NCBI GenBank assembly: GCA_036873755.1
Contig: JAVTVY010025371.1
Span: 47,019-111,018, forward strand
Reading direction: 5' to 3'
Length of the DNA: 64,000 nt
From: Hanleya hanleyi
Taxonomy: Eukaryota; Mollusca; Polyplacophora; Lepidopleurida; Hanleyidae
Part shown: positions 8,229 through 58,184 of the stretch, piece by piece
How the letters are laid out: each line of letters begins with the position of its first letter
Numbering within the stretch: position 1 is the first letter of the stretch
Translations under genes and position numbers: made by a program
Notes under the pieces: model-generated
Database searches by the model: none
The model's input: the letters and a program-made list of their open reading frames with translations, nothing else
Told to the model about the DNA's origin: nothing

Positions 8229-8230
8229 CA

Positions 8231-8508: not shown

Positions 8509-8509
8509 A

Positions 8510-10965: not shown

Positions 10966-12113
10966 CATGTATCTAAGTTATGGGAAACATTCTGTATCAA
11001 GGGATTTTAGGGATGATTTACCAGGGGTTACATCATTACATCAACGGAGAGGCCATCTTGGATTTTTTTCTTTCTGGAAGAATTTAACCCCAGTTTAGAA
11101 GTTTCAACCCCCTTGGATATGTATACTGGAAGAGGAGGGGGAGATTCACTCCAAATGGCCCATGCCAAACACGGTTGAAGTTCAAAGAGAATTCACCAGA
11201 GAAGAGAGAGAACATATAATGGGAGTTTAGGGAGAGACTATCACAGACGAGCTAGAGAAATATTAATATTATCTATTATTATTATTATTATTATCGGTTA
11301 TTGATTAGTATTGCAATATGTTCGTGTTTGCTCCAACAACAGACCTCACGCCAGTTAAGACCGAAGTCTAGCATAATGATCCAAGCGGTACCAGAGGTTC
11401 ACCATAGGGCTCAGCTTCTGTGAATCCAAGAGCACGTCAATGAATTGTTGGTCTGAGGTGGAGGGAATGCCACCCCCTTGCGTTGTCACCGTAAGGTATC
11501 CGGGGGAGTGTGGTTAGTAGGGGTTTAATCCACGTACCTGGGTCTGCTGCACGGCTGTGTGTAATTCCCGGCTGGATACATCTTAAATTTGTCAGGTATA
11601 ACTTTACCCGATCACACAAGCAGGGAAATCGTAACATCAGTTTCCAGACATTTCATAGACAAACATTTCCAGTTCTAATCAATATATTTGAATTGATTCG
11701 ATGCTCCAAATTCAGTCTTTTATCATAAGAAATAGATAATAGAAGATTAGCCCACATTTTATCAGTGATTTGTTATTGTTTCCATTCCAATTGATTGCAA
11801 ATATTTCCAATCGGTCCAAAAGAAATTTCAATCTTATGAATTATTAGAGATGACGATTATATTATATTGGATCTTTATATTTAAATATCTTAATCGTGAA
11901 TCTGTTTTTGACTATAAAGCTGAAGCATGAATTCGAGATAATAATTTACAATCAATCTTGATCAAATGGAAATGCTTTTGATGCCACTATATGATAATCT
12001 TCATGCGTCAAATTCCACCCATGTTCCCCGTGGAAAATGAGTGATAAGCTATACAAACGTCAATATTGTGGGTAACTGATGCTCGATTTCTATCTGCTTT
12101 CTAGTACAACATA
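10966..12113. other. Spacer without recognisable gene
   Basis: No domain or exon seen. An ATT microsatellite occupies about 11272-11294. Two overlapping short frames at 11437-11728 on opposite strands show nothing recognisable. Confidence 0.55.
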
Positions 12114-12304
12114 CACCGGAAAAAATTGTGTCAGTACAATTTTGTGATAAAATAGCTTCAACAATCAAAATGGTTTTGTATTGAACTTTGTATATCAGCA
12201 TAAAATCGAATTGAGTTCAACACGAATCAGTGCTGAATCTAACACAATATTTTCAACACAATTCATGGTGCTAAAATTGGGTTAACACAATTTTGTTCGC
12301 AGTG
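12114..12304. mobile_element. MITE, 191 bp
   Basis: The left end caccggaaaaaattgtgtca and the reverse complement of the right end, cactgcgaacaaaattgtgt, pair over about 30 bp. The interior repeats the words acacaatttt and cacaat in both orientations. There is no coding capacity and no clear target duplication. Confidence 0.5.
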
Positions 12305-12587
12305 CACGATGCCGCGATAATGTACATGACCCAGTCTCAAATAACCAATGTAGACCTGATGGTGAAAAGGGTTCAAATCAAGGTTAAATCGGATAATGGT
12401 TGTAGTCCATGTACGTGTCCTTTGCAAGTGTTACTTAAACAACGACATGCATGTGATGCATTCAAATATTGCATCCAGATTTCAGCATCGGACTCAACGT
12501 ATATTTTTTAACAGCGACAGACACACTTGCAATACATTCATCGATTCATTGTTATTATCTGACACTGGCACATGTATGTTCAACATT

Positions 12588-12957
12588 AATCCTACCCGGC
12601 CTGGGCGTTTGGGGGTCTGTCCCATCCGGAGGGGGTGAGGGGGGGGAGAGGGTAGAGAATTGAAACTTTCCATAATCTTTTCGGCAGCCATTTTTCGCCA
12701 TTTTTTTCTATTTTGCGATATTTTCTATCAAAAACATGGTAGAGAATAATTAGTTAAGCCATGTCAATGAAGTAAAATGCGAAGAAATTGTCAGAAAAAA
12801 ACGAAAACATGATTTTCTGAGGACAGAAACCTCGTAGCAGCCATCTTGATCCTTTGAACCTAGGAATATGCAAAATTGTCTCAAAATGACGTCACTAAGA
12901 TTCGCGGAAAAATCAGGAAGTTTCAGCTCTCCCCCCCCAGGCCAGATAGGGATAATA
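12588..12957. mobile_element. MITE-like repeat, copy 1
   Basis: Begins taatcctacccggcctgg and ends ccaggccagatagggataat, which are inverted versions of each other. Inside are a G-run, several aaaatggc-type words, a tgacgtca-like word near 12889 and ttcagctctc. A diverged copy is at 46085-46480. The 90-residue frame on the minus strand at 12750-13022 shows nothing recognisable. Confidence 0.55.
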
Positions 12958-13557
12958 CACATTGTAATTGTATGTATGTATCTGCACAGAACTAATTCAA
13001 CTCGCGAACATTTACAGAACACTCAACATAAAGTATAAAAGTTTTCCTTTAAATAGGGTCCCTCGGTTTCAAATGAACATAATTTTGTATTTGACAAGGA
13101 ACAAAACTTGTTCATATTTGATGGGAATCAAGATTTAACAATTTTGAAACTAGTTTCATGGTTGTACCACACAAACCAGAGAATTTTAAGCATGTTTTAG
13201 AGATGGATTCAAAACTGTGCAGATCATTCGATATCTGTATATAAATGATATTCTGAAAAGAAGAAAAAGAACAAGAAGACTTAATGAATATCGTTTGTGT
13301 AAGCGTGTTTGGGTGATGTAGTTGGGTGCAAACTTTATTTTCAAACTCTCTCCTGTAAATGAAAGATGGCATACAGTATTGTGCTAAGCAACGTCGCACA
13401 GTGTGGCACACATACACTGTGTACCATAAGTGTATGTATATTATTGTTGCCTTTTGTATACTGTTATGGTATTTTTCTCGGTCAACGAACATAACTGTAG
13501 AAACCACGCTTCAATACATTTCATTGATTTGACTTAGATTTTGTCTTAGAATAAATT
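12958..13557. other. Spacer; one unrecognised minus-strand frame
   Basis: A 131-codon frame (13112-13507, minus) has no motif I recognise, and its composition follows the local AT bias. I treat it as chance. Confidence 0.4.
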
Positions 13558-14290
13558 CAAAATGGCGACCATACTTGCCCCAATTTCACCGCCATTCACC
13601 GTCATGACTTGAATTAGACAAAACATGTGCAAAACGCAAGTTTTAGTTGACTCCGTATGGCCGCCATTTTGAATTTAATCATTATGCTCTGTGCTGAAAA
13701 TGCTGCGAATAGTTTTAAAATGAGCTATGGTAAAAAATAGCTCAATTTGACCAGTATGTTTTTTATACTTTTGAAATACATTGAGTTAGATAAAAGATGT
13801 AGAAAATAAGGTTTCAGATGACTCCGTATGACCGCTATTTTTAATTTGACCATAATGCTTTGGCTAAAGATTTGTGAATGGTCTGAAAAAATCCTAGAAC
13901 ATCAGCCAATAAGCTAAATTTGGACAAATATCTGATTTGAACTCTAAAAATGCATTGACTCAGACAAAATTATGGAAGAACGCATGTTCCAAATTTCACA
14001 ATATAGCCGCCATTTTTAATTCTACCAATGTCCTTTGCCCTGAGGTTTGTGACAATGAACCAAACATAATATGACATGAGATGAATTTCCTCAATTTCTA
14101 CAAATTTGTGCTTCTTGGTTCTCAAAATTGTGCCAAAATTCTGCACAGTCTCCGAATGGGCTTTGAACTATGATTATATAAAGTTCAATTTGACAAATAT
14201 GTCCTTCGGACATAATTATTATACTTTATATTAGACAAATGATTAATGGCAGCTATTTTGAATTATTTTGTACAATATGTGGCAAATATT
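13558..14290. repeat. Old ~170-bp tandem array with ATGGCGGCC core
   Basis: The words gtatggccgccattttgaattt (13659), gtatgaccgctatttttaattt (13839), atatagccgccatttttaatt (14003) and atggcagctattttgaatt (14247) recur about every 165-180 bp, each followed by a cataatgct-like word. The units are strongly diverged. A related array lies at 29755-30370, a single related unit at 36900-36950, and a solo word near 14968. Confidence 0.65.
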
Positions 14291-15457
14291 TTTCTTACAC
14301 TTTCCCCGTAGCGGGAGCTGAGCTCCAGGGAGCTGGACCTTCCTACAATATATCTTGGGATCAAACTCAACCAGAAAATACATGTCTGATGACGTCACGG
14401 TGACGTAAATTTTTTTTTTTTAAATCGGTGACATTTTTTTTCTCCTGAGCCCACATGTAGACACTTTTACACACCCTCTAGAAAATATCTCCATACAGCT
14501 AAAAGTATGCCTTTTAGCTATGGTAAAGTATATATTTGTTGAAAGCGCTTATGGATTTCAAATATATGTGTTCACTGTAAATCTGTGGGGTTTGGAATTA
14601 TTCGAATTTAAATAAATTATTTTAAAAAAATGAGCCTTCTTTTCCAGTTTGCTATTTTCAAAAAAGTGGTCAACTTACAGTAACTTACATCATTATTTCC
14701 TGTAGAAGACAACTGGAAATTTGTGTCTCGATTTTGTCAGTTTTGTTCCATTTCTTATTCCATTGACATTTAATTCAAGTTTAAAACTGTGACTTGCTCG
14801 ATTTTGTAAAGAAATATCGCATTAAATGCTAATAGGATGAGAACCAGGCCAAACTTGATAAAGCTGAGAACAGATTTAATGTTGTCTTCTATGGGAAATG
14901 GTGATGTATAAGTTATAGGGTAGAAAATTAGAAGTAAAATGACAAAAACTTGTTAGTCTGACCCATATGGTCGCCATATGAATGATCCTTGGTCCATAAG
15001 ATCTCACTATTCCCCTCAAAAATATCTCCAAATGTGTTTTACAAAAGATATTTGCTATAGTAATCATACGTTTGTAATATTGAGTTCAACAAAAGAAATA
15101 TTGACCGTGTGAATCAAAACTGGTTATTTTGCAAATAACAAAAAACTACTGCATTTGTGGTAGCTCGAAAATCCAAATTTAAAGGTTTAATCATCTTTTT
15201 AATTCAAATATTCAATAGTTCTGTATATTATGATTATCGCATCGGTGACTTGAAACATTTGAGCTTGCTATGCTTTGTTATCTGAAGTTAACTGAAATGT
15301 TCAAAAGTGTCACCAGTTTATTTACAACTACAATAATGTCACACCGTCGTCTCATAAAGCATTAACAAAATTGGCGGGGGTAAGGTATAATCACCGGGAA
15401 ACCAGTTGGAAGACCATCCTTCATAATGGAGATCAGTATACTCTCAAAATAGGCTCT
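14291..15457. other. Spacer without recognisable gene
   Basis: AT-rich, with a T-run at about 14409-14420. No exon or domain is visible. Confidence 0.5.
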
Positions 15458-15552
15458 CAAAATATGACAAAATTTAACAAAGATACAACAGGGAGCTCCA
15501 AATACTAAAGAAATATTAATATTAATATCAAAATTTAATGGATAATAGTTTG
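15458..15552. repeat. Dispersed ~95-bp repeat, copy 1
   Basis: From aaaatatgacaaaatttaac to aatttaatggataatagttt, this matches 18556-18655 almost base for base, with few substitutions. It includes the self-complementary aatattaatatt. Its class is unknown. Confidence 0.75.
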
Positions 15553-15673
15553 AGAATGAGAGGAATGCTCGGAAATCGTAAAACAGTGTTGGGTTATTTA
15601 TGGTATCTTGGTTATATTTTCCCGATTCTAATATAATTTATGTCAAAAGTGACGAAGATGATATACTTCATAC

Positions 15674-15960
15674 TTACGTCGCTTTATCCGAAGGCGCGGC
15701 TCTCATCTCCCTTTTAAAGCTCTGAAGGCTTGGGGATGGAACGTCCTCTTCAGATAGTGAGTTCCAGTCGTTTAGTATCCTGTGAGCAAAGAACTCCTGC
15801 CGGATCCGTGTTTTGGCAAACGGCTTGTATAAAGTCTCGGTATGGCCCCTTAGATTTCTGCCGTGTGTCCGATGATTGAATAAGTCTGTTGATGGGGTTT
15901 GTATTCACCGTTCAGGGCTTCCAGTGGTCTGTGAAACCGCGGAATAATCACAAGATTGAC
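15674..15960 (-). pseudogene. LINE ORF2 C-terminus remnant (CR1-group type)
   Basis: Reading leftward from about 15960, the minus strand encodes a short piece ending LEALNGEY and then, in a shifted frame, LFNHRTHGRN, RIRQEFFAHRILNDWNSLS and SFKREMRA, stopping with TAA at 15674-15676. The R-x-FF-x-R-x3-WN-S-L pattern followed by SFK is typical of the region after the reverse transcriptase in CR1/L2-like LINEs. The upstream endonuclease and polymerase are missing (5' truncation) and there is at least one frameshift near 15885, so it is dead. No tail repeat is visible downstream. Confidence 0.65.
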
Positions 15961-18555
15961 CTGAAATATATATTTACGATTGACTGAAACATCTCACTGC
16001 AGATTTGCCAATACGAAATAAACGTTTTGTACATGAAATATCTATGAGAGGTTAATTATTCACATGTTGTTTTTCAGTCTACTTTTTGATTATACGACTG
16101 ATGCACAGGTAGATAAATTTTATACCAATACAGAAAGCTAGTCATTTATTTAAAGTTGAAGAATATATACAAATGAAATAGATTTATTGAACTAAAACGC
16201 AGAAGATTTCAACAAGTTAATCGCCGAAAATACCCATTCAGTATGCACACATTTTTGCGGTCAACTTTTTGGCAAAACAATATTTATCTGACACCCTTGG
16301 GGTCTATATTATGTAATAGAGAAACATTACAGCTTCCCAGTGATATGAATATTAGAATCAAGTAACACATATATATACGATAAATTAACAGTGTTTGACA
16401 ATTTCCGTCATTCAAAATGGATTCCTGTTAGGTGGTATTCGAGGTTGTTGTTATTTAATTAAGAGACCATCTGATTAATTTGCAGTCTGAAAGTATTAAA
16501 GAATTTAGTACTCACATCTGGACTTTCGTTAACATCTTGACTTGCCTTTCAATCGACATTATGTCCCAGTAACACCGTGCAGTTTTCATTCTCCAATATA
16601 GTAGGAAATAACAGAATATACACTAAAGTCAATGCAAATGGCAAACGTTGTCAACTGCATTCGAGTTTCGTTCGAGTTTCTGATTAGAAACATTTCTCAT
16701 TGGTTAGATTTACAAATAGAGAATATCCGATTGGCTGTGAACAAGACGAGTACACATTGGTTGTTTCGAGACAAAACGATGGCTGTGTCAGAAAGATTTT
16801 CTTGGCCACCTCCTGTACATGCTGTTATAATTTTCGGCGGCAAATTTTGTGTAGACTTACTGTTCCGATGTGTGACTTTCTCTTTCATGCCTGCTTGTGA
16901 TCTATCGGATACACACAATGAAAGTTCAAATACATATTCACACTCCATATTGTGAATCGTGAAACCCCGTCATGTGGGAGACTTGCTGCCGGACTTCAAA
17001 TGGCACAAAATATAACAAAGATGCAAACTCGATCTTCCATGTGTACAGCAATATTGAAAAGTATTTCCAGGAAATGCTTGGCCTATGTCGAAGAGATCTA
17101 AAAATGCAACACATTTTATATATATATATATGATAGCTAATCAAATTACTTAATATTATTTAATCAAATTATTTTATATGAAAGAAAATATTTTGAAAAT
17201 GTGTTTCTGAATTCTCCAAAAGTATTTTGGGGTTGAATATTCATTAAACATCTCAGATATGCATTTAAATCAAAGTCATTGCATCAAGCCAGTGCCTGGA
17301 GTCTGGTGAGGAAACCTGTCTTTGAAATGTAAATGAGTGGCAGGTTGCCTCTGACTGTTTTGACTGGCAGGAACTTTTGTTTGTGGCTTTGAGTGTTTGC
17401 ATAACAATTGTGATCTGGATTCTACAGGTGACCTTCATTTACAAGCCCAGTGTATTGATTCCTGGAGTGTTTCCCAGTTTTCTTCAGCTTTGGAAGAACA
17501 TTTGCATATGAACTTGGGTGTATACTTTAGCCTGCAAGATGTTGCAATCCTGTCAGTTGTTGAACATTATATTTTTTTTCCACCACAAGCATCATGAGCA
17601 CAAAGACTGAGCAATTCTATTTGAACAGCTTATCTGTTTTTATTATCAAGAGTGCAAAATGCTGTTATATTTGTAACGCCTATGGAGAATTGAAGAAAAC
17701 AGATTTTCTGAATTTTGGGAATTATCCATCATATCTTTGATGCTTGCCCGGTTTGCAAGGTCTTAATTGTGCAAATATATTCTAGTATTACTGGTATAAA
17801 TGGAAGAAAATGCTTGTCAAGTCGAGGTGGCAAGGATGGATGCCAGAGCAAAGGCCGTATATCAGACATCAGCCCTTCATTCACACTGAAATAAGCATTA
17901 CATTTTTAACGAAATATTGACTAATGTAGTACATTCTTTACTAACGCAGACCGCAAAAATTGAAACATGAACCGAGTTCGTGGATCTATGTCCCAAAAGT
18001 TCCATTGGACAGACGTTAAATTTGTAATTAACCCATTATTACGGCGTAGCGAAGGGAAATATAGGCCATATGTGTCACACATTGTATGGCCATACAGCAT
18101 GTTTAGAACGATTGGATTTGACAGATGTGCTAAAACATTAATTGTCTCATTCGTACTGTCTTCATTCAATTAAGCCGAGAAAACTTCTGGTTTGGCTTCA
18201 TTGCCCCTTTTTCTTTTGGCCGGTTGCCTTTGTAGAGTTTTAAGTATTTGCCTAACAAAAGATTGTAAACTTGTGAGTGGACGCCCCGAAAACTGTACTG
18301 GTTGGCTGTAATCGCTTGGTATTTACTTTAGAATGTTGACTTTCTTGAACGCAGAGGAGAAGCTAGCCTCAAATTTAATTGTCAATCATTCTCAGTTGCA
18401 TTTACATTTTTCTCGCTGTCAAATTGAAAATCGAATAAATAAGTATTAGAGGAGCAATACCCAACAAAAAGTCTTTCTCAATTTTGCGCTGCTAATATTG
18501 ACTGCAACAGAAATTGTTCGGTTCCCTTGCCCCTTTGTGATGGCATTCACTTAGA
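15961..18555. other. Spacer; three inverted CCAAT boxes near 16700-16760
   Basis: No recognised gene. Overlapping frames on both strands at 16632-16955 share one sequence and show no domain. At 16697, 16728 and 16757 the words attggtta, gattggctgtg and cattggttg are inverted CCAAT boxes about 30 bp apart, an NF-Y-like arrangement, but I see no gene downstream. Another pair of overlapping frames at 17921-18173 is unremarkable. Between 17270 and 18840 short words (caggttg, gtttgcataacaa/tttgcctaacaa) recur weakly. Confidence 0.4.
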
Positions 18556-25388: not shown

Positions 25389-26453
25389 CTAAGGAAAACC
25401 TCTATTTCATGCTACATTTGCGATGAGCCAGGTCACAACGCGGCTCAATGCAGGCTTAAATCGAAAGTTGCAACTTCTTTATCGTTTGCTACATGTTTTG
25501 TGTTAGACGATCAAAACACTTGTAGTAGGGCGGAAGCTACATGTCGTATTCCTGTAATTGGTAGTAGTTGTTTGCTGCCGGAGAACGCAGAGGTATTGAA
25601 AGGTTTATCTATCCAATCTGGTTTTGTTGGTAACCAATGTGTTACTGTATTGCTCGATAGTGGATACTCTGGAGTTACTGTTAAACGCAGTTTGGTTAAG
25701 GATAAACAATATACAGGTGAGACAAAGTATTACATTTCTGTTGATAAAACTGTAAGAGCAGCGCCTGTTGCAGAAATTCACGTAGACACGTTTCAGTATA
25801 TCGTAGTGGTCAAAGCTCTGTCTTTAGAAGATCCCATTTGTGAACTAATTCTTGGTAATATTCACTTTAACGGTAGTGTTAAACCACAAGAGCAGGTATT
25901 CACCACACCTAAAGCGGTAGTTGAGCAGGAACAAGTTGTAAGTTCTTCAGTTCAAACTAGAAGTCAGGCTCAAGCAAATAAGATAAAAGTTCGCCCTTTA
26001 AAGGTACCAAATTTATCAGAAATTGGTGACGCTGCAGAATTTGTGAACGAACAAATGTCACTATCTTTAGCGCGTGAGATGGCTGATAGTAAAAAGATAA
26101 CTCTTCGAGCCACGGCGAAAATTCAGTTTAGGGAAACGAACAATTTACTGTGTCCCAGAGTATCTTCAAGAACAGATGATAGTGTACATGACCCACAATT
26201 GGTCGTTCCGAAAAAATACCGTAAAATAGTAATGGAGATGGCGCATGACCCCATGCTAGCAGGTAATATGGGCATTACTAAAACGTTAGCGCGTATACTG
26301 GCACATTTCTATTGGACGGGAATGCATGCTGATATTCACCGATTTCGCCAATCGTGTGACGTTTGTCAGAGAACAATTCCGCGCGGAAAAATTCGAAAGG
26401 TACCGCTACAAAAACAATATTATCACGACGCCATTTTATCGTGTAGCTGTTGA
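25389..26453 (+). pseudogene. Gag zinc knuckle, protease and integrase zinc-binding part
   Basis: The frame is open from 25389, after a stop at 25386. It encodes a CX2CX4HX4C knuckle CYICDEPGHNAAQC at 25410-25451, then a retropepsin with the active-site motif LLDSGYSG (about 25650-25673) and the closing CELILGNI (25839-25862). A linker with SVQTRSQAQ leads into an integrase zinc-binding domain: KYRKIVMEMAHDPMLAGNMG, then HFYWTGMHADIHRF and CDVCQ. The second histidine expected in the HHCC finger is Asn (AGNMG). No reverse transcriptase lies between protease and integrase, matching Gmr1-like order. A frameshift near 26420-26450 ends this frame at SCSC. Confidence 0.8.
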
Positions 26454-30370: not shown

Positions 30371-31741
30371 TCATCGTATAATTGAAGGTATTGTGTTTAC
30401 ATAGATCTGAAAGTAAAATTTCTCTAAGCCAAGCCAGCCTATTCATAAAATAGACCCACCTGTCCCTTACAAAAACAAGTGAGAAATGACTACATTGTAG
30501 TCAAAACCTGCGGCAGTGGCAATAATACAGTGAAAGGCATATCAACGGAGATAGTGGTAAATTGCCGAGCAAACTGGAAAATTTATATTTCCTTAAGTTA
30601 ATTTTCAATGAATTTAGTATCAGGTCCATCTCTTTGATCTGTGAAACTATGGAAGGGGGTTGAAGGCTTTATCCAACTGTCCAAGGGGCATAGTTACACT
30701 TTTCACTATTCAAATTGAGGCCTGTGACAGTATTGATATTTGATTACAATAATTAATTAAGTTTCTGCATTTACGTGTGTTATCATCTGCAAACTGAATA
30801 CCTTGACACTCTTTTCCATGCAGCAAGTCAATGGTTTGCTCCTTCTATATAAATGATTAACTATTTAATTCTTAGGAAATATCATCTCATGTTCGACCAA
30901 GCCTTTTCGAAGGTTGCTTATTTTATTAATTTCTTTTTTTAAAAATAAAATTCTGCAAATAAGATACATTTCTAGTCAGTATCTATGGATATCTCCCTAT
31001 ACTCAATTCGCGAATATGTTTGTCACTAAGTCATTCCGAAGGTGATTTATGTGCGAAATGTCAGGGCTAGTTCACTAAACAAGGTTTGTGTGCAAGAGAA
31101 TTATGTCGAATTCTCGTTATTATCTTTTGGTACATCAATTATTGCATTCACGAAAACGGCTGCCAAGTTAAAGTCAATATGAAAGGCATCTAAGTATCAA
31201 ACTCAAAAACTCCTCCGGAAAATAAGGCCCAAGCTTTTGACAACGAGGTCAAACAGATCGCTTTTATAGTCAGCATCTGCTAATACATGACGCAATTCCA
31301 TTCGTAAAACTGATTGACAAAGTAACGTAAATTGTGAAGTGTAGAACCAGTAAATTCTAGCGGAAATGGGCTCTGACTTGAGAGAATGATGTGAAATGCA
31401 ATATGTTTCTGCCCATTCTCTGCTGATACACATAAGTATTGAATCCACGGGAGTGAATCTAAAGGGATTCTGAGTGCCGAAGAGGACGAGAACATCAATA
31501 CCAGCGAAGCGAGTCCCTGGCTTGCGAGAATGAGGATAGAGAGGCTGTGTTCCGAAAGAGGACCATTCAAAATAGCCATGTGCCAAAGTTCATACATGTA
31601 ACCGAAAGTGCACAATAAAAACTCTACAACTATGATGTATTGTTCGCTCATAGGGTTGTCTAACTCATTAAATACAAAATAGTGATTTCTGTATAAAAAA
31701 CCAGTTGCGCATAAAGTCAGTTTTGAGTATTATCAATGAGT
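30371..31741. other. Spacer; overlapping minus-strand frames near 31203-31651
   Basis: Two minus-strand frames of 127 and 123 codons overlap almost fully in different phases. Neither shows a domain and both cannot be genes; I see no splice context and leave them uncalled. Confidence 0.4.
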
Positions 31742-31812
31742 CGGTTTCGCTAAGACAGTAAGTTCATCTCCAGTGATTGGAGGGTCATTGTTTCGATTCC
31801 CACAGAGGGTTA
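31742..31812 (+). other. tRNA-like head of a SINE, or tRNA pseudogene
   Basis: gtttcgctaagacagtaag resembles a box A region, followed by catctccagtgattggaggg and tgtttcgattcccacagagg, a good box B (gtttcgattcc) in the right spacing. There is no 3' CCA-side pairing good enough for a functional tRNA. Probably the pol III promoter of a tRNA-derived SINE. Confidence 0.35.
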
Positions 31813-32572
31813 ACTTATTCTTCCTTTCAAAACATATTTCCATATATGCGAATTGCTTGGGGGGGATAAAGTTAAACATGATACCAAATTGTCATTTCTA
31901 TAAGTTAAACATCTTTATTCGACGAAAGTTGGTGAGTTTGTCCCTAACTTCTGAAACGTAATTGTTGCGTTTGTTTTTATGATGCATGATCTATAATTTG
32001 ATACCAAGTATTATTCAATGTTAATCATAATGACAATGCGTTGCTTATCTACTTCTTCACCAATTTGTAAATTATCTAGATTGGGTAGATAAAATGAGTT
32101 ATAGATGTAGTTAACTTATTTTTCAACTTACTAAGGCAGTCGCCTATCAATGTATGCAAATTAGCCGAACCACTGACACGGTTGCGGCTCATCTTCCTTG
32201 GTATATAGGCAATTCAAGGATCTTAAAGATTATATACGTGTAATTACTGTTCAGTGAAAATGGTAATATCTGAAAACAATGACTGATGTGTCGATCGACA
32301 GCTTTTTTTTAGCGTGCTGACGTAAGAGAATTGATGTCTGAATGGAATTCAACGAAACAATAATTCATTCCACCAAATATAGTTGCAAATGAATTCAAAT
32401 GTGCCTGAAGACAGGGTTGTCATGTGAGATCGGAGGTTGAAAAGAAAAGTGTCGCAGAGATCACACTCTCTTAGCGCATGCGTATTTCAAAAAGTCACAA
32501 GAAGAACAACAAGAACAACAAGAACAACAACAACGCGAGCCTCTCGTAGACCTGCGTGCCGCAGGTAAAAAT
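31813..32572. other. Spacer with AAC-rich microsatellite
   Basis: No gene seen. An aagaacaac microsatellite occupies about 32500-32534, followed by the small palindrome cctgcgtgccgcagg just before the repeat-bounded block. Confidence 0.5.
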
Positions 32573-32682
32573 CTTATAGGATCCTATAAGATTCTGAAAA
32601 ATCCTATAAGATTATTCGAAATCTTATAAGATTCTAAAAAATCCTATAAGATTCTGAAAAATCCTATAAGATTCTGAGAAAA
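32573..32682. repeat. Left array of aatcctataagatt words
   Basis: About six copies of a ~20-bp unit aatcctataagattctgaaa, after one full palindrome aatcttataggatcctataagatt. Inverse orientation to 36565-36857. Confidence 0.8.
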
Positions 32683-35369
32683 TCAATTTCCACTCTTCTT
32701 GGGGAAAACTAATTTAACGTTTTCAGAGAGTGATGTTTATGCGGTCTTCAGTCAAGACAAATATATCTCAAATGCGTTTGTGCTTAATCAGGACAGATCT
32801 GTGAATAACCACAACACAAGTAGTATTTTGGACCCTATATGATCCAGATATTATAGGATTTGCAATTTTATATGATCATATATTATTCAATATCAGTTCA
32901 CATCACGCAAGTAATGTTCTCCATATTTGGCTGCTCGCAGTTGGAGAGAGAGATTTTGTACCACAAATTTCCAATCTGCTGCTCACGAAGCATCAAATAT
33001 CAATTTTGGTAGTTTCATATGAAATTCATCTTGAATTTAATAAAAACTCATGATTAATATTTTCAATAGCTATACTATATTACAATTGAATTGAAGGATT
33101 AATTTTATTTTCATATTGTGTGAATATTCTATCGTTTATGCTGATATTTGACTGAAGTATTTTGAAATGTCACTTAGGAAATGGTAATAAAAATTGACAA
33201 AAAACCTAATTGCCATCCATCATAGTTCGATATCCAAACAAATGCAAGGTCACTGAAAACTAAATTTAAATATTCTAACTGAAATCGAATTCACTAATAA
33301 TCTTCATCTGAAATTTATTTAAATTGGAATAAATGTATGAAGTTTTGAATATTTGATTGTTTTGAATTAAAGTTTTATTTAAAATTGAATTAAGGATGTC
33401 CATAATTAACTTTTCGAATAATGTGTGTTGCTGCATTCATAATTGTGTAATATGTGGAATATAGGTCGGTGTGCATTATTTAGCTGTTGACACTGTTAAA
33501 AAGACGGACCCATGCTCCATTTGATAACCTAGAAAACAAAGGGAATAGCCCAGGTTTTGAATCCTATTCACAAAAAAATTACATAAATTAATATTTAACT
33601 TTTTCCTATATTCTAACTGTTTGGAGACAATCACAATGTCTATCAAATTTATCAAATTGGATGAATGTTGCTGCACAAAATTCTCAGCTAGAAGACTTTT
33701 AAAGGAAATCCCTGTCGCTTAATTTAACTCAAACTGGCAAAAACTGCTGCCAAGAAAAAATCACCAGCAGACATCCCTTAAACCTTGATTGTCATCATTT
33801 CATTATGAAATATGTTATCATTCAACTACTTGAAGATTCTCATGAATGAATAAACTTCTGATCAGTTCAAATGGTTTCCCAATCTAAATGGTATTTACAA
33901 AATCTCTCTACTTCAAATGGAGGGGAGATAACTCTGCTTGTTCACACTTGGTGGCGCTGCACAGAGACAAGAAAGATTTTTTTGCAGTTATTTTATTAAT
34001 AGCTGACTGATTTGAGGACAGTAAAAGTTATATTTCCGAGTATATATGGCTGATGGAACGATCTCAGATTGATGGTAAGTACCTTTTGCAAATTGTAGGC
34101 TAAAATAGCATTCTAAAGTCTCCATTTGTTAAGTCTGGAATATTTTGGACTAGTTTAAAATATATTTTAGTTATATAAGTAACTTTGTCAGGTTTGTATA
34201 TTACACTGTAAATACAACAACCAAAACATTATACTGCCTTGGAAAGATTTATTTATCTCACCCGTTTATGAAAGAAAGGGCTTGTTGGTTGATTTTCTCG
34301 TTTTCTCTAATCTCATGGGTAGGATAGTTAGGCATGTACTTTTATTAAGCCCAGTGTAATTAACCTTAGATATAAAATGCTGTCTAACATATATTCCAAT
34401 AGCTGAACAGCCATGTATATTTTGTTAATTAAAATAACCAGTCAACCTCACAAGAATAGACCAGTTTGTCTTAGTGGTCCATTGTGTAAGGGATTAACCA
34501 TGCTGGGTGACTCTTTGCACAGTTCAATGTGAGAAACCCAGAAGGGGGTGTTTTTACAATCTCATTGTGTCATTTCCTGTACTGGTATACCTTCTATCTT
34601 CAATAGTCAAGCCATTTCAGATGTTTACATGAAAAAATTGACATGACATATGAATGAATTGATAACAGTTGATTTGTGATTCTTTCAAGTCCTGGCTTTT
34701 ATTTCCTACTGTCGGTTTCACAGTCTGAGCTTCCTGTCCCGTCAAATTGCATCTCTCCTCACCCCACCATAATGAACAGTTTATCAATGATGTTTTTATT
34801 ATGACGTTCACAGCTTCACTGTGGACTCTGGCGAAGGAATACAAGTACACTTACAACACAGCTTTGCCCAGTTCCGGGTAGGCCTAATGTACCAGTGGTG
34901 TGTATTATTCCTGACAACCCGAACTTGGGATGCTTTAATTTGTCGAGCTAAGGGCTGATCTATATGATGCTACAAAGTGGGGTTAGTATCGTCCATTGTT
35001 CACTCCATTCAACACTCCATCGTATTCCTCTTACATATCAATATAAACGTAAATTGGTATTGTTGCCTAAACTTTAATATGTGTTGTACCCCATTTATGT
35101 ATTTTTCAATTGTGATGGTTGGGGGGGGGGGGGGGTTATCGTGTACTGTACATTCTTTCATACACATTATCTGAACGAAGTTAAATGTCATTTATTAGAA
35201 TTTCCAGGTTGTTTGGTTACGCATTGCATTGCATTTTCACATTGCTTACATGTATTTCAATATTTAAAGTTAGTACACAATTGATTTGAAAATTGTTGAG
35301 TTTATTTTCGAAATAAATCGTGATATGATATGGTAATAATTGTTTTCCCCACAGGAGCCTACAAAGAAG

Positions 35370-36258
35370 ATGAGCAAGACAGTTTGTGATGCCCGGAAGA
35401 ATGAGCCAAACAACATCCTTGAGAAGTTAAAAAAGCAGCGACAAGGAAACCTTCTAGTGGCACCTGTTTATGACGAGTCAGATGATGTAAGTATAAATTC
35501 AACTATCATGACTATTCAGCTAAATCCCTAGGCTATTATCAAATAATTAATTATTTTGACCATTGAGAAGATTTCTCATTAATTGTCTCATCTATATTTA
35601 TTGGTAAGATTTTAAATTTGTTTTTTTTTGCAAGTTTGCTAACCATTAAAATGCATATTAAATGACACTGACTTTTAATAGTTAACAAGCGATCACTTGT
35701 AAATAATCATTTAATGTAATTAATCTTAGTAGATAATAATTCAATGAGATTTGATCCTTTGTCAACATGATTCTGCAGTTTATGACTATTAACATTCTGA
35801 CTGAATATTATCAATCCAATTGTCCGTACACATTTTGTATCTTTTATTTCATCCGAGATAGATGACCATGGACCTAATGAGTGCATTGTTCATGAGGAAT
35901 GAAATGGCCTCCCATACTTTGACAGGGATGAAACCCAATGTGACAAGAGAGGTAGAGGCTAAGCCTGCAATTGACCAAGAAAAGATCAAGCCATCCAAGG
36001 TAAAAACTTTTCTTCATAAATACTCCAAACATCTGATAATTAATCCCAAGTTCAATGACCATGTTTTTGATAGCTTATAGTTTGAAATGTTGTGATTGAA
36101 TATATTGATATTCAGTGGCTAACTGCAAATTATTTCATTCTCTTACAGACTTCTGCCTGAAGAAATTCCCAAGTTCCGTGAAAGTCATTCGGGAAGCAAT
36201 GAAGTCGAAACTTAATGGCGAGCAGAAATTGTACGGAAAACTGATGGAGAGATTATGA
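35370..36258 (+). CDS. Candidate spliced gene in the repeat-bounded block
   Basis: Exon A (35355-35486) lies between ttttccccacag and gtaagt and holds ATG 35370 in an aagATGA context (MSKTVCDARKNEPNN, ILEKLKKQRQGNLLV, DESDD). Exon B (35862-35999) lies between ccgagatag and gtaaaa (LMSALFMRNEMASHTL, EAKPAIDQEKIKPSK). Both are multiples of three, 132 and 138 bp, and join in phase 0. A third part follows tctcttacag at 36148: an acceptor there gives a stop after three codons, while an acceptor 14 bases on (ctgaag) opens KFPSSVKVIREAMKSKL and KLYGKLMERL to TGA 36256-36258. AATAAA follows at 36307. An upstream 5' exon may end at gatg/gtaagt, 34074. The product is a charged protein of about 116 residues with no recognised family. 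Confidence 0.45.
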
Positions 36259-36564
36259 TGCCCTCATATGTTCCTCCGTTTATATCTCAAAAGTGTACAT
36301 GTACATAATAAAGAAATATTTATTATATGTATTTGTTTGTTCTTTCTATGCGTTAGTTATTTACCAGATTATCTTTAACATAGCTGTGCTACATCCAAAA
36401 CAAGCAATGTTTATTCTAATACATTTTCTGATGTATTTACTATTTTACAGCGCAGGGTCATTTTGTATTTCATGAAGTTACTATAAAAGATGACCTATAT
36501 CACTCATCCAAATATTCCTATAGAAACTTTATATCCTGTAGATTTCTAAGAATCCATTCCATAA

Positions 36565-36857
36565 CTAAATTTTATAGGATCCTATTAAAAAATCCTACAA
36601 GATTTTTATCCTATTAAAAAATCCTATAGGATTTCAATCTTATAGGATTTTAATCTTATAGGATTTTAATCTTATAGGATCCTGATTTCTAGGATCCTAT
36701 TAAAAAATCCTATAGGATTTCAATCTTATAGGATTTCAATCTTATAGGATTTTAATCTTATAGGATCCTATTAAAAAATCTTATAGGATTTTGGGCCAAA
36801 ATCTTATAGGATCCTATACGATTTTATCTTATAGGATCCTATAAGATTTTTTTGTAA
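36565..36857. repeat. Right array of aatcttataggatt words
   Basis: About fifteen copies of aatcttataggatttt or aaaaaatcctataggattt, interspersed with ttataggatcctatt. Because each word is near-palindromic, the array could form cruciform-like hairpins. Confidence 0.8.
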
Positions 36858-36860
36858 GGG

Positions 36861-37940
36861 GTCTATTCGTATAATCATCAACTTGAAAAATAATTGGTGA
36901 ATTCAAGATGGCGGAGATATGGAGTCCTCCGAAACTCGTTCATCTTTGTAAATGTAATTCGCCAAATCCAAAGGGATTATTATAGCTGGAAGTAGACATT
37001 TCATAGAATTGATCTGTTTAACACTGTAGCTGGCGATATTAGGTCAGTTGTTAAGTCTGCATAATCCTCCTTAATCCTTAAGACAACATAATGGATGCTA
37101 TGCCTAACTTAAATTGCTAGATACTCATAAGTAGCAATTAGTACTATATTAATTTATAAACAATTTTCACCATTTTGGAACTCATTTGACCCCCAAAAAG
37201 ACCAAAATCAGGGTGGTATCCCGTCCTACCTTAATCCCTACCATACAAATTACAACACATATATTGAGGGATGTGGGAAGAGGTGCCGACATACTGACTG
37301 CGTCATATGACTTCACAGAATAGTCTTCTGGTAAACCTATTCTAAAGCACATACCAAGAATCTAACGATTCGTGATATGTGTTGTATCTCAGGTACGCTT
37401 TTATTGTATCTGTTCATGTAGCAACATGGATGATATGACCACACGGCCGCTAGCACCGGCATGCACCGGCAAGCACTAATTTAGCATGGGTCTCCATTTG
37501 TAACACAAAATGCCATCAAAACTTGTTTAAATAGCTTTTCATACCTTTGGCCGGCTGTGTACTATCTCTAGAACGATAAAAAACTGACATCTGAAACTTC
37601 TCGACTGCATAGCTCATCAAAGCTAATCCAAATAGGACTTAAAAGTCGGAAAGAAAGTGAATTTTTAGAATATGACGGCATTGAGACGTCATCAAGACGG
37701 ATATCTTGAATTGTTTTACACATTCCGTCGGGCCTGATCTCAACATGTATTGTGGAAAGTTTCAGCCCCCTAGCCCAAGCGGTTCTTTGGAAATTGATGT
37801 GCTAAACATGTTAAATTGTAGGTGCAGTCAGTTTATATAATTCAGTGACAAATGCATTTTTATTTCTGAAATCTATATGTATTTTCATATAATTTCGAAA
37901 ATATGTTTGACTATGGCGTATTTAAAATGATCGTAAACCC
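36861..37940. other. Spacer without recognisable gene
   Basis: Contains one unit of the ATGGCGG family (gaattcaagatggcggagat, about 36900) and otherwise AT-rich unique sequence. Near 37446-37475 gcaccggcatgcaccggcaagcac is a short direct repeat. Confidence 0.5.
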
Positions 37941-43022: not shown

Positions 43023-44440
43023 GAGCTATCCGTTGATAGCATACCACAAATGTCGGATTTACACCTCTGTGCAACCAATCGGCTATTACATGCAAGAACA
43101 CGGTACGAATAATCAAGTAATAACACATGCAGGAACTGCGTATATCTTAACAGGTAATGGCACAAGCCGGAACACGGTAAGTACCAAGTATTAAAGATAA
43201 CACATGCGGGAATTCTGTATATATCGACAGGTAATCCAACAAGCAGAAACACAAGAAGTATTTTCAAGTATATTCACCAGCAGGAAGTCGGTACCATCAA
43301 GTAATAACACATTCGGAAACTCCATATTTATCAACAGGTACTAACACAAGACGGAACACGGTAAGTACCAAGTATTAAAGATAACACATGCGGGAATTCT
43401 GTATATATCGACAGGTAATACCACAAGCAGAAACACAACAAGGATCTTCAAGTATATTCACCAGCAGGAAGTCGGTACCATCAAGTAATAACACATTCGG
43501 AAACTCCATATTTATCAACAGGTACTAACACAAGACGGAACACGGTAAGTACCAAGTATTAAAGATAACACATGCGGGAATTCTGTATATATCGACAGGT
43601 AATACCACAAGCAGAAACACAACAAGGATCTTCAAGTATATTTACCAGCAGGAAGTCGGTATCATCGAGTAATAACACATGCAGAAACTCCGTATTTATC
43701 AACAGGTAGTGACACAAGACGGAACACGGTAAGTACCAAGTATTAGAGATAACATATGCGGGAATTCTGTATATATCGACAAGTAATACCATAAGCAGAA
43801 ACACAATAAGGACCTTCAAGTATATTTACCAGCAGGAAGTCGGTATCATCGAGTAATAACACATGCAGAAACTCCGTATTTATCAACAGGTAATGACACA
43901 AGCCGGAACACGATGAGTATCAAGTATTAAAGATTACACATGCGGGAATTCTGTATATATCGACAGGTAATATTACAAGCAGAAACACAATAAATATCTT
44001 CAAATATATTCACAAGCAGGAAGTCGGTATCATCGAGGAATAAGACATGCAGGAACTCCGTATTTATCAACAGATAATGACGCAAGCCGGAACACGGTAA
44101 GTACCAAGTATTAAAGATAACACATGCGGGAATTCTGTATATATCGGCAGGTAAATACCACAAGCAGAAACACAATAACTATCTTCAAGTATATACAAGC
44201 AGGAAGTCGGCATCATCGAGTAAATAATAACACATGCAGGAACTCCGTATTTATCAACAGGTAAGAGATAGATACAAGCCGGAACACGGTGAGTATCAAT
44301 AACCAAGTATTAAGGATAACACATGCGGGAATACTACAAGTACTGCCACAAGCAGAAACACGATAAGTATCATCAAGTGTTAGCACAAGCAGGAACTCGG
44401 TAAACATCGAGTAATAACACACACAGGAAAAAGAAAAGAA
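43023..44440 (-). repeat. 184-bp monomer array between LINE ORF1 and ORF2
   Basis: The word cgggaattctgtatatatcg recurs at 43207, 43391, 43575, 43759, 43943 and 44127, exactly 184 bp apart, with a diverged copy 199 bp on at 44326. Each monomer is itself built of about four ~46-bp sub-units sharing an acaagcaggaa-c-cggta-like core (caagcagaaaca, cagcaggaagtcgg, gcaggaactccg, agccggaacacgg). Minus-strand frames here (for example 43559-43819 and 44067-44306) repeat peptides such as YRIPACVIFNTWYLP, but 184 is not a multiple of three and frames change every unit. Position is inside the LINE spacer, not its 5' end. Confidence 0.9.
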
Positions 44441-54659: not shown

Positions 54660-55592
54660 CTAAATATCCAGATACGCCGAGGTCACACCATCTGGGAGAG
54701 CTTTGTGCTTGGGGTAGAAGAATGTGATGGCATCGCGCTGCTGGGTGTAGGAGCGCATCTGGTTCTGGACGACACGAAAGCCCTTGTTGGTTCCACAGGC
54801 GCTGGTCTGGCTTTGTGGTACATCGAGGTACAGGGCTTTGGTAGTGTTATTATCCCGACGATTGAACCCGTTACAGCTGAACTTGTTTGTGTTGTCCCCG
54901 CCGTAACAATAGTATGTTTTTGAACAGAGGGCGATCATGGCCTCACCCGTCCATTCTAAATTTAAGAGGGCGGGGGTCCTTTTATCGTAGTCGTTGTGCT
55001 CTTTTCTCGGCAGCCATCCATCTTGTTCGCTTTCATAGCATTCTCGCTTTTCCGGTTTGACAAAGGATTCCCAGTTCGTGTTGAAGACGGCCATGTACGC
55101 GGAATCCGTATCCATCTCCATTAACTGCCAGTCTGACGGGTCAAAGAACACGCCAATAAATGTCAGCATCCGCAACTTAGCCATCTGGTACACCATGCAC
55201 CCGCATTTGCAGCGGTAGGTTGTACGTGATAGTCTATTTGGACGAGGTGACTTCATACCTGGTGTCGTTAATCATCTCCATGTGTCGGTACAGGGGTTAA
55301 TTCAGGCGTTTGCGGGCTTTTTTGGTGGGGCAAATCTTAATGTCGGCTTGGAGGTCCTGGTTGGTTACGGTTTTACCATAGCCACTCTTGTCAAGAAACT
55401 TCATCGTTTCTGCGATAATAGCTTCACTGGGTTTGGCATCCCCTTTGCGACGGGCAGTGGTCGCGGCTCCGCAAATTCATTGAAACAAGCCTCGTATGTA
55501 AACTCCATCATTTGATAGAATTTTGGGGACTTAGAGACCGTGATGCAGGTAATATCGCAGTAAGGGTGTGCCAAGCAGGATCTTCTCGCCAA
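54660..55592 (-). pseudogene. Polymerase palm, motifs B and C
   Basis: KFYQMMEFTYEACFNEFAE is followed, in another frame (about 55440-55285), by EAIIAETMKFLDKSGYGKTV. This is motif B (K-x3-N-S-x-Y-G) with Lys in place of the usual Asn. The last frame (55256-54660) carries QLMEMDTDSAYMAV, motif C with both catalytic Asp (D-T-D-S), then CSKTYYCYG, GTNKGFRVVQNQ, RSYTQQRDAITFFYPKHKAL and a final TSAYLDI. The C-terminus appears complete. Confidence 0.75.
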
Positions 55593-55778
55593 ACATTCTT
55601 CCGATTAACATACGCCGGGGTTGTGTGAGTATATTATGTTCCTCGGCATACGCCTACATGGTGGCCCAATGTCGTCTCATCCCACCTTGATGTTTTTGAA
55701 GATAGGTGGACATTCGGCGATCTTTGATTTCAGGTGGTCAGGGGCATGGATGTCACATTCGACGAACCCGTAGCGGTC

Positions 55779-56517
55779 TCACGTTTTAACAGTGCGTAGT
55801 ATGTCGGACATGGTGATGATGATCCGGTGATCCAGCAGCCGGTCATGCATCTGGTGGAACTCACATTCCCATAGTTGTACATAGGCGTAGCCCAACCCCT
55901 GGATATAGTCGCGGTTCGGGTCCTCTTCCTGGCGTAAGACGATCGGGGTCAGTCCACGGCGATCGTTATAGCGTCCTCCTGTGAACGAACACTCCTGACC
56001 GTGCCAGTAGCTGGAACTGGAACACGATCGGTATTTTATTGATGATGGCGAATCCGTATACGGGAAGGCGCCAATCTCCAATTCGTTTCTGTGTGGTTAA
56101 TTTGGTGGCGGATGGTGAGTCATTGTTCTGCTAGATGCTTTGTAGTACGTTGGGCTTTGAACGCCTGCCCATCAGGCATCCACCGTGTATAATGACCTGC
56201 CGGGATGGGTTGACTCAGCACGCAAGGTCAAATCGGTCAGCTCCCCCTTATGGTACCGATGGAATATAATACTGGGGCTGCCCACAATGTTTCCTTCGAA
56301 ACAGTGCAAGATGTCGATGTCATTCTGCTCGACGAGGGCGAAGAAGGTTGGGAAATCCTGGAACAGATCCTATGAGATCGTTCTAGAAGGCCTCATGTGG
56401 TGGCTCGTCCAGACGGTCCAGGTGGACAGCAGCCTTTGTTCTGAGCGCAGTCGTAGGTTTTCACCCACTTTTCATAGCTGTAATTCGGCGCAAGGTAATT
56501 CCGCACGTCGTGGATAG
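55779..56517 (-). pseudogene. Polymerase middle region, frame-broken
   Basis: Fragments in several frames: YLAPNYSYEKWVKTYDC (about 56450-56500), LDRLDEPPHEAF (about 56390-56420), GNIVGSPSIIFHRYHK (about 56255-56305), then, in the 56081-55779 frame, FTGGRYND and YIQGLGYAYVQLWECEF. These are sub-motifs between exonuclease and palm in this polymerase type. The catalytic motif A is not clearly preserved. Confidence 0.6.
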
Positions 56518-56530
56518 AGCGGTTGTTCCT

Positions 56531-57265
56531 TTACTTAATGGCATTTTTCATATTCCCGGCTTTGGGTAGAAAGGGATACAATAATTTTTTGATCAGGATC
56601 AGATCGTACCGCCTCGAATTGAACCCGAGGATGGGTAATTCGTTCAAATATTCCAACAAGCGTAGCTTCAGTTTCTGGGCATAGGGTTTCGGTAGTTTGT
56701 GTTCAGCGTCCCCGGTTTCGGTTTCATCCTCAGTTTCTCCTTCGGTGTCATCCTCTAGAGCCGACTTCGAAATACGGGCATCAGGTGCCGCTAAGACATC
56801 ATGGTAGATTATGGAGGCGATATGTGACGCACTGGCTTGGCTTTCCAGGTAGTTCATGATCTGGGTAAACAGTTCATGTGGGTCACCGGCAAAGACGAGA
56901 CAAACAGGGTCGGACTCCAGGGCACGTTGGTGTGGATACTCGCACTCGAGGGAATGTGGCGCTGAGTTCATGGGCTCTAGTAGGGCTTCAAAATCATAGC
57001 AACCTCGGAACGGAACATAGCGGTGGGCGATGGGAACGTCAATGCCTTCATCCACCAGCTCTTCAACTATGGTGGGTGTGTTGTGGAAGACGCCGCCATG
57101 GAACCTCCGTTTGACGGTATTGTCGCAGGTTTTCTCGTAACAGTGTAAAAACCAATACTGTTTGAACACGCGATGGCATTTGGTACAACTGTACGACTGG
57201 GCGTAGATGTTCATATACGCAATGTACCAGAAATGCCCGCCAGTGTCCGTCTGGTACAAATTCAA
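56531..57265 (-). pseudogene. Polymerase 3'-5' exonuclease domain
   Basis: 244 codons. A Cys/His cluster (SCTKCHRVFK, LHCYEKTC) precedes CYDFEALLEPM, the D-x-E exonuclease I motif at about residues 89-92. An acidic insert (EDDTEGETEDETETGDAE) follows, then LPILGFNSRRYDLILIKKLL, the exonuclease II motif with its FNS-x2-YD core near residue 215. Proofreading residues of both motifs are intact; exonuclease III would lie beyond the frame's end at 56531. Confidence 0.75.
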
Positions 57266-57434
57266 CTTCGTGGTTGTGTCGCACTTCTCCAGGGAACGAT
57301 GCGCGAGGTGGGATACGAGTTACGGATCATCGGTGTTGTTGTCATCCGCGTTTTGGGTCCGACTGTACACAACAATATAACCTGGAACAAGCTTTCCACC
57401 ACATCCAGTTGTGATAAACGGGACCTCACAAAAG

Positions 57435-57992: not shown

Positions 57993-58184
57993 TATAGGGC
58001 GATGTGGGTGAAAACAGTGCCGGATGGCGGACCAATGGCGTTAATAGATCGTACTCACAGCGTCCGGTATCGGTGACCCCTGTGGGCGGTCAATCAGGAT
58101 CTGTGGTAAAGGTTACATCCTCAGTGGGGTCTGGATTCCGCGTCAGTGGTGATCGAGATCGTTTATCTTGCATTCTTGGAATTG

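What the first reader, a model, noticed from the sequence alone, without database searches (positions are those of the whole stretch)
32573..36860. Repeat-bounded block carrying a phase-consistent spliced gene
Two arrays of a ~20-bp near-palindrome (aatcctataagatt) face each other 4.3 kb apart, like subterminal inverted repeats of a transposon. Between them a plus-strand gene has exons of 132 and 138 bp with good splice sites, both phase 0, a start in exon A and AATAAA at the end. I know no transposon class with such arrays as termini, and the ~116-residue product matches no family I know.
Basis: partly seen in the sequence, partly recalled or inferred. Interest (0 to 1): 0.75.

Follow-up and report, generated by a model that had tools for sequence, protein, structure and literature searches.

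The report
Deleted CACTA-type transposon with BEN relic
The block is a shortened copy of a jumping gene of an abundant animal family whose long relatives carry two genes, a transposase and a BEN-type DNA-binding protein that probably grips the short mirror-image repeats at the element's ends.

Summary
The block is a non-autonomous copy of a DNA transposon of the animal CACTA-related (TRC / CMC-EnSpm) kind. It spans 30464-36860, because about 2.1 kb of another element is nested in its left end. Termini are CCCTTAC...GTAAGGG with a 2-bp target duplication (GT/GT). The arrays are family-wide: both were read on 5 of 14 contigs fetched, and the array lies beside the gene relic in the 30 best-scoring loci.

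The 'spliced gene' is a relic of a BEN-domain gene. Exon B begins at a deletion junction, and its frame is shifted in 34 of 36 aligned copies, this one included. Longer relatives carry a BEN gene read head-to-head with a Transposase_21 gene: 16 of 16 pairings of transposase with the gene's N-domain or BEN exon, on 15 of 54 transposase contigs, some at about 40% transposase identity. Array palindromes differ between families (AATCCTATARGATT; GTCCTATAGGAC; more weakly TACTATAGTA).

My best reading is that the BEN protein binds the element's ends, like plant TNPA. That is inferred, not shown. A published precedent is the BEN-like fold that reads the ends in Tn3 transposase. Seven literature searches listed no report of a BEN gene in CACTA elements.

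The parts
30462..30463 (.). left copy of the 2-bp target duplication (gt)
   Evidence: matches gt at 36861-36862
30464..30474 (+). left terminus CCCTTAC plus part of its A-run
   Evidence: pattern; sequence; same terminus in other copies
30475..32565 (.). another mobile element nested in the left terminal A-run (edges to within a few bases); not part of the transposon
   Evidence: three pieces 84%, 91% and 97% identical to the insertion inside copy L012 (edges)
32567..32684 (+). left terminal array of near-palindromes AATCCTATAAGATT, 20-bp spacing
   Evidence: 99% identical in L009, L010, L011
32685..36567 (.). interior of the short, non-autonomous subfamily; only the part next to the left array and the last ~1 kb align to the long C951 copy
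   Evidence: 95% identical over 4.2 kb (right array included) to L010 and L011
   Evidence: BEN 18.9-21.3 bits, cut-off 23.2; relatives extend upstream in frame
36148..36258 (+). BEN exon C relic with stop codon; read in the BEN frame it is one nucleotide out of phase with exon B
36307..36312 (+). AATAAA, likely poly(A) signal of the ancestral BEN gene
   Evidence: sequence
36568..36853 (-). right terminal array of near-palindromes, 16-bp and other spacings
36854..36860 (-). right terminus GTAAGGG
36861..36862 (.). right copy of the 2-bp target duplication (gt)

Best explanation
The block is an internally deleted, non-autonomous copy of an animal CACTA-related (TRC / CMC-EnSpm) cut-and-paste transposon. 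Shown by sequence: (1) shared CCCTTAC...GTAAGGG termini and 2-bp target duplications; (2) arrays of short near-palindromes at both ends; (3) long relatives with a Transposase_21 gene and a divergently transcribed gene whose product has an N-terminal domain and a C-terminal BEN domain (in C33138 also exons that look coiled-coil-like and Pro/Ser-rich by eye); (4) the same head-to-head layout in related families. Inferred: the BEN protein, as a dimer or multimer, binds the palindromes of the terminal arrays. It thereby brings the two ends together for the transposase and may also regulate the element, as TNPA does on the subterminal repeats of plant Spm/En. The window copy, like its short subfamily, keeps only the ends and a broken BEN relic and was mobilised in trans by long copies. 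My confidence in the identity is about 0.95 and in the role of the BEN protein about 0.6.
For: Identity: other copies with arrays at both ends, interior 95% identical over 4.2 kb; termini; 2-bp duplication in 7 of 8 short copies with both ends read; a 739-aa ORF in the C951 element matches Transposase_21 at E 6.3e-6; animal TRC elements have CCC termini, 2-bp duplications (7 of 14 copies in S. mansoni) and Transposase_21 (PMC1636069, abstract and passages).
BEN gene: BEN of C951 and C33138 scores 33.4 and 42.2 bits against a cut-off of 23.2; that of C33138 matches BEND6 (1.2e-11) and Drosophila Insensitive (1.8e-5) structures. The array lies beside the BEN relic in 30 of the 30 best-scoring loci, window included. 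Of 54 contigs with a transposase match, 15 also show the N-domain or a BEN-family exon (about 0.2 expected if contigs were drawn evenly), and 16 of 16 pairings are head-to-head. In 21 of 21 contigs with both, the BEN exon lies downstream of the N-domain on the same strand. BEN codons are constrained: dN/dS 0.09-0.13 between six short copies and C951.
Role: TNPA binds subterminal repeats, and unrelated binding proteins serve different CACTA families (PMC2613891, passages). BEN domains bind palindromes: Insv CCAATTGG as a dimer (PMC6317261, passages), BANP head-to-head (PMC11472053, passages). [quoted passage not shown] Array units differ between families while staying palindromic in two of them.
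Against: No binding or transposition was tested. The C951 transposase hit (26.0 bits) is under Pfam's own cut-off (28.6). The window's own BEN relic is also under Pfam's cut-off. C951's BEN gene is not intact as it stands: the donor after exon B does not read GT. The two long copies read at both ends show no target duplication (0 of 2: C951, C33138). Thirty-nine of 54 transposase contigs showed no N-domain or BEN-family match; the BEN search scored only 150 of 771 candidates, the transposase search 61 of 508, and many copies are partial. The N-domain matches of the five ~40%-family contigs are weak (35% identity, E 4e-4 to 8e-4). The exon B+C list shares two contigs with the transposase list: C24084 is head-to-head, C14676 has a short-family relic that is not. 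In the ~40% family read, the palindromes of the array are not above shuffled sequence (3 against 1.8, reached by 140 of 500 shuffles). The TCC...GGA likeness to the Insv site could be chance. Five fetched contigs carry the array with no other part of the window element.
Confidence: 0.72

Rival explanations
1. The BEN gene is only a passenger: a host BEN gene was captured once by an ancestral element and is carried along without a role at the ends.
For: The abundant short subfamily amplified with a broken BEN relic (34 of 36 aligned copies shifted; median pairwise difference 1.7%), so a copy needs no BEN of its own to spread.
Against: The gene sits in the same divergent layout in families whose transposases are only 38-41% identical and its codons are under constraint; a passenger would be lost or scrambled. 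Short copies would be served in trans in any case.
Confidence: 0.2
2. The BEN protein is the element's answer to host silencing or a regulator of its own promoters (arrays as operators or insulators), not an end-binding transposition factor.
For: BEN proteins such as Insv act as boundary factors (PMC6317261, passages); TNPA of Spm also regulates its own element (PMC2613891; PMC1636069).
Against: The arrays sit at both termini, directly against the CCC ends, and are kept in non-autonomous copies that have no intact gene to regulate.
Confidence: 0.17
3. A host locus with two independent insertions of an array repeat.
For: Nine of the 14 contigs fetched showed one array only in the stretches read.
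Against: The same interior, arrays and termini recur at different sites with 2-bp duplications; 30 of the 30 best-scoring gene copies have the array.
Confidence: 0.01
4. A foldback-type element (FB, TU or Galileo), in which long tandem-repeat termini are the hallmark.
For: Termini made of tandem short repeats.
Against: Target duplication of 2 bp, not the 7-9 bp of those elements (recalled); the transposase of the long relative is Transposase_21.
Confidence: 0.02

Closest known systems
SmTRC1 and other animal TRC elements (CACTA superfamily; PMC1636069, abstract and passages read)
   Same: Termini begin with CCC; 2-bp target duplication; Transposase_21; deleted copies; a region of tandem repeats. 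The authors propose that its second product, SmTRC-PrA, is an analogue of TNPA.
   Different: 'BEN domain' does not occur in the paper. SmTRC-PrA comes from alternative splicing and had no similarity to other TRC elements by their account; here the candidate is a separate, divergent BEN gene. SmTRC1 has a single 54-bp terminal inverted repeat rather than arrays of palindromes.
Maize En/Spm and soybean Tgmt* (PMC2613891, passages read)
   Same: Transposase plus a second, DNA-binding product; repeated motifs next to the ends, some able to form palindromes; motifs and binding proteins diverge between families; deletion derivatives mobilised in trans.
   Different: CACTA rather than CCC termini, 3-bp duplication in Tgmt*; the second product arises by alternative splicing of the same transcription unit and no BEN protein was named in the passages read; here it is a separate gene read in the opposite direction.
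Tn3-family transposase TnpA, domain DBD1 (PMC9579193, one passage read)
   Same: A BEN-like fold recognises the terminal repeats of a transposon sequence-specifically.
   Different: Bacterial; the domain is part of the transposase itself, not a separate protein, and the likeness is of fold.
Insensitive (4ix7) and BEND6 (7yul, 7yun) BEN domains
   Same: Closest solved relatives of the element's BEN domain; Insv binds an 8-bp palindrome, CCAATTGG, as a dimer (PMC6317261 passages).
   Different: Host chromatin factors, not carried by a transposon; site CCAATTGG rather than a CTATAG core.
Foldback elements (Drosophila FB and Galileo, sea urchin TU; recalled)
   Same: Termini built of short tandem repeats in inverted orientation.
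   Different: Longer target duplications and, for Galileo, a P-type transposase (recalled); not met here.

Membership tests
Animal CACTA-related (TRC / CMC-EnSpm) transposons | Transposase_21 (tnp2) transposase | tested here: met
   In the long relative C951: PF02992 E 6.3e-6, 26.0 bits, below the curated cut-off of 28.6; 65 matches of that protein in the genome. The window copy has none: only BEN among the 41 block ORFs scanned.
Animal CACTA-related (TRC / CMC-EnSpm) transposons | Terminal inverted repeats beginning CCC | tested here: met
   CCCTTAC at both ends of the window copy and of the nine other copies read at both ends (L009-L011, L031, L040, L047, L051, C951, C33138).
Animal CACTA-related (TRC / CMC-EnSpm) transposons | 2-bp target-site duplication | tested here: met
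   7 of 8 short copies with both ends read; 0 of 2 long copies.
Plant CACTA (En/Spm proper) | CACTA core at the termini | tested here: not met
   Termini are CCCTTAC.
Elements with a TNPA-like end-binding protein | Second product that binds the repeated end motifs | not testable with these tools
   A candidate (BEN gene) exists next to the transposase; binding needs an experiment.
BEN-domain proteins (PF10523) | BEN domain over the curated cut-off | tested here: met
   Relatives C951 and C33138: 33.4 and 42.2 bits, cut-off 23.2. The window's relic is below it: 19.5 and 21.3 bits.
Foldback elements (FB / TU / Galileo) | 7-9 bp target duplication (recalled) | tested here: not met
   Duplication is 2 bp.

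The most novel reading that the evidence does not exclude
A lineage of animal CACTA elements uses a BEN-domain protein as its TNPA: a dedicated, divergently transcribed end-binding protein that recognises palindromes in the terminal arrays. Protein and array then change together from family to family around a CTATAG core. This would add a transposon-borne class to the BEN proteins and make elements of this kind a possible source, or recipient, of the BEN domains found in animal chromatin factors.
Probability: 0.5. Interest if true: 0.75.

Novelty: new variant of a known kind. Interest (0 to 1): 0.6.

Why it matters
The end-binding protein of plant CACTA elements (TNPA) is well known and differs from family to family. 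For animal elements the SmTRC1 authors proposed an analogue and called for its test (PMC1636069). Here is a candidate with a structurally understood DNA-binding domain and its putative sites in tandem at the element's ends, with two clear variants of the site and one weaker one in the same genome. That makes two questions testable: how animal CACTA ends are recognised, and how a BEN domain changes its palindrome. With the BEN-like end-reading domain of Tn3 transposase, it also offers a concrete route by which BEN domains could move between transposons and host chromatin factors.

Tried and rejected
The 22-bp palindrome was absent (exact match) from viral contigs. No tRNA (bacterial model) or Rfam family was found in the window. 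Pfam on 41 of the 50 block ORFs listed found BEN only, and on 44 of the 71 ORFs of 90 aa or more in the window no transposase of this kind. The upstream 'first exon' near 34050 and the ORF near 34800 were considered by eye and dropped. A host gene with two independent repeat insertions was rejected; a foldback element was rejected on the 2-bp duplication. Whole-genome counts of termini and of shifted and unshifted BEN frames were not obtained: the server did not answer.

Rows dropped and selection: the 14 contigs fetched are 14 of the 20 in the printed part's list, and five of them were taken because the list showed both arrays, so 5 of 14 is no estimate of a rate. L032 is the window itself and was left out of the alignment of 36. 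One of the 34 'shifted' copies, L011, also has a 4-nt insertion. The 30 loci are the best-scoring of 163 matches (1221 candidates, 150 scored), so they lean to the short subfamily. The 16 pairings use the lists; the two further shared contigs are told apart.

Full report
Check of the observation. The window holds two arrays of a 14-bp near-palindrome; the 18 matches of AATCYTATARGATT (up to 1 mismatch, 0.09 expected) lie in them. Their outermost 26 bp are perfectly inverted. The 10-bp palindrome count in the right array is above all 500 dinucleotide shuffles (7 against 1.5); in the short left array it is 2 against 0.3, reached by 18 of 500. Exons of 132 and 138 bp with AG/GT edges and one open frame are present.

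Other copies. The genome G000 (2.48 Gb, 52,793 contigs) has 6375 + 6549 matches to the unit at up to one mismatch; the reversed control has 537 + 616. I fetched stretches of 14 of the 20 contigs in the printed part of the list, some because it showed two arrays. On five (C23, C61, C764, C950, C951) a mainly plus-oriented and a mainly minus-oriented array face each other about 4 to 12 kb apart. On nine only one array lay in the stretches read: C600, C631, C573, C383, C440, C481, C337, C657, C519. The last five match the array but no other part of the window element, so solo or very divergent ends exist. L010 and L011 align to the window over 32682-36860 at 95%.

Ends and target duplication. The termini are CCCTTAC-A(n)-ATCTTATAGG at both ends. 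In the window the left CCCTTAC is at 30464, because a ~2.1-kb element related to the one nested in L012 interrupts the A-run. The flanks are gt and gt. Of eight short copies with both ends read, seven have a matching 2-bp duplication: window gt, L009 tc, L010 gt, L011 ca, L065/L040 ga, L066/L047 ta, L067/L051 ca; L064/L031 does not match. The long copies C951 and C33138 do not match.

The gene. The product matches BEN: Pfam PF10523 E 0.0012 for the in-phase reading and 3.1e-4 when exon C is read in the BEN frame, both below the curated cut-off, and human BEND6 at 3.3e-5. Searching the genome with exons B+C gave 163 matches (1221 candidates, 150 scored). In the 30 best loci (the window among them) the array lies roughly 0.7-0.9 kb downstream of exon B in 30 of 30, and 28 have the clean terminus. 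In an alignment of 36 copies, 34 (the window included) have one nucleotide fewer in exon B than C951 and C573, which puts exon B out of phase with exon C. In C951 and C33138 the frame of exon B continues upstream for 24 more codons to a splice acceptor, whereas similarity of the short copies stops just before 35862. The short copies differ pairwise by a median 1.7% (465 pairs of 34 copies): a recent burst, most simply from one broken master.

Long relatives. The C951 element (about C951:2767-14510, right end first) holds a 739-aa ORF matching Transposase_21 at E 6.3e-6 (26.0 bits, cut-off 28.6) and, on the other strand, BEN exons and an N-terminal exon; the donor after its exon B does not read GT, so this copy's BEN gene is damaged too. 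The C33138 element, 3793-16139, has a 747-aa transposase frame 67% identical to it. On the other strand lie, in order, an N-domain exon, a further exon, a coiled-coil-like exon, a Pro/Ser-rich exon (both judged by eye), BEN exon B and BEN exon C, with splice sites in phase at the BEN junction. The BEN domains of C951 and C33138 score 33.4 and 42.2 bits (cut-off 23.2); that of C33138 matches BEND6 (1.2e-11) and Insensitive (1.8e-5) structures. BEN codons: C951 against C33138 synonymous differences are saturated (pS 0.80) with pN 0.20; six short copies against C951 give dS 0.53-0.58 and dN 0.05-0.07. The N-domain matched no Pfam family.

How general the pairing is. Transposase matches (65; 61 scored of 508 candidates) lie on 54 contigs, N-domain matches (69) on 66, BEN-family matches (150 scored of 771 candidates, all over the cut-off; 0 of 14 control genomes rang) on 146. 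Nine contigs share transposase and N-domain, seven share transposase and BEN, C33138 both; 16 of 16 pairings are head-to-head. Fifteen of 54 transposase contigs carry one or the other; about 0.2 would be expected if contigs were drawn evenly (contig length is ignored). The pairings include families with transposases 38-41% identical to C951's: six with BEN exons over the Pfam cut-off, five with the N-domain at weak E-values (4e-4 to 8e-4). On 21 of 21 shared contigs BEN lies downstream of the N-domain on the same strand. The list adds two contigs: C24084, head-to-head, and C14676, where a short-family relic lies on the same strand as the transposase. Thirty-nine transposase contigs showed neither gene part; capped scoring, contig ends and partial copies may explain this, or a real absence.

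Arrays change between families. C33138: 11 (right) and 13 (left) 10-bp palindromes, mostly TCCTATAGGA, against 0.5-0.7 in shuffles. C32905 (~40% family): the end downstream of the transposase is CATAAGGG, preceded by about 300 bp with six CTATAG and three TACTATAGTA; the palindrome count there is not above shuffles (3 against 1.8). So variation of the unit is well shown for two families and only suggestive for the third.

Mechanism. Plant TNPA binds subterminal repeats and is required with the transposase; different CACTA families use unrelated binding proteins for different motifs (PMC2613891, passages). BEN domains bind palindromes: Insv binds CCAATTGG as a dimer (PMC6317261, passages), two BANP molecules bind head-to-head (PMC11472053, passages), NAC1 binds ACATGT (PMC7764960, listing and abstract start only). 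In Tn3 transposase a domain with BEN-like fold is a key determinant of end specificity (PMC9579193, one passage). The simplest reading is that the BEN protein is the element's end-binding factor. This step is inferred; nothing here shows binding.

Comparison and novelty. The element meets the marks of animal TRC/CACTA elements: CCC ends, 2-bp duplication, Transposase_21 (PMC1636069, abstract and passages). That paper proposes a TNPA analogue for SmTRC1 but never uses the words 'BEN domain'. A BEN gene as second gene is what appears new. Searches for BEN domain with transposon and terminal inverted repeat, with transposable element and transposase, with DNA transposon, with EnSpm, with CACTA and BEN domain-containing with transposon and mollus- returned 2, 4, 2, 0, 2 and 0 papers. 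One search (any two of BEN domain, CACTA, EnSpm, tnp2, Transposase_21) returned 112, of which 25 were listed, none with 'BEN domain'. I judged these by title and abstract start; opened for passages were PMC5704228 (BEN only in its reference list) and PMC9579193. The library lacks most subscription papers, and Repbase was not available.

Noticed in passing
30475-32565: A ~2.1-kb element nested in the left terminus of the transposon; a 2.5-kb relative is nested inside copy L012 (L012:2382-4878).
   Followed up: partly
3401-5006 and 6138-7736: A large inverted repeat (88.7% over 1620 bp) made of 163/478-bp tandem units, with an identical 129-aa ORF at each outer end (3553-3942 minus, 7195-7584 plus); similar-looking 153-bp units recur at 61010-61430.
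   Followed up: no
8231-10748: Long minisatellite stretch: 34-bp and 48-bp units, the latter about 27 copies with strong GC skew.
   Followed up: no
43112-44421: Satellite-like array of a 184-bp unit, 7 copies, 89% matches.
   Followed up: no
25389-26450: ORF with an integrase zinc-binding domain (E 2e-17), a retrotransposon remnant; three of the 44 window ORFs scanned match reverse transcriptase.
   Followed up: no
54663-58040 (minus): ORFs that look to me (from memory) like a Maverick/Polinton DNA polymerase; Pfam gave no polymerase match.
   Followed up: no
C440, C481, C337, C657, C519 (L019-L023): Arrays 83-90% like the window's left array but no similarity to the rest of the window's element at the threshold used: solo ends or a separate small family.
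   Followed up: no
C24084:4439-6369: Transposase fragment (95% to C951) lying only ~570 bp from a BEN exon in the same divergent layout, apparently a different internal deletion.
   Followed up: no
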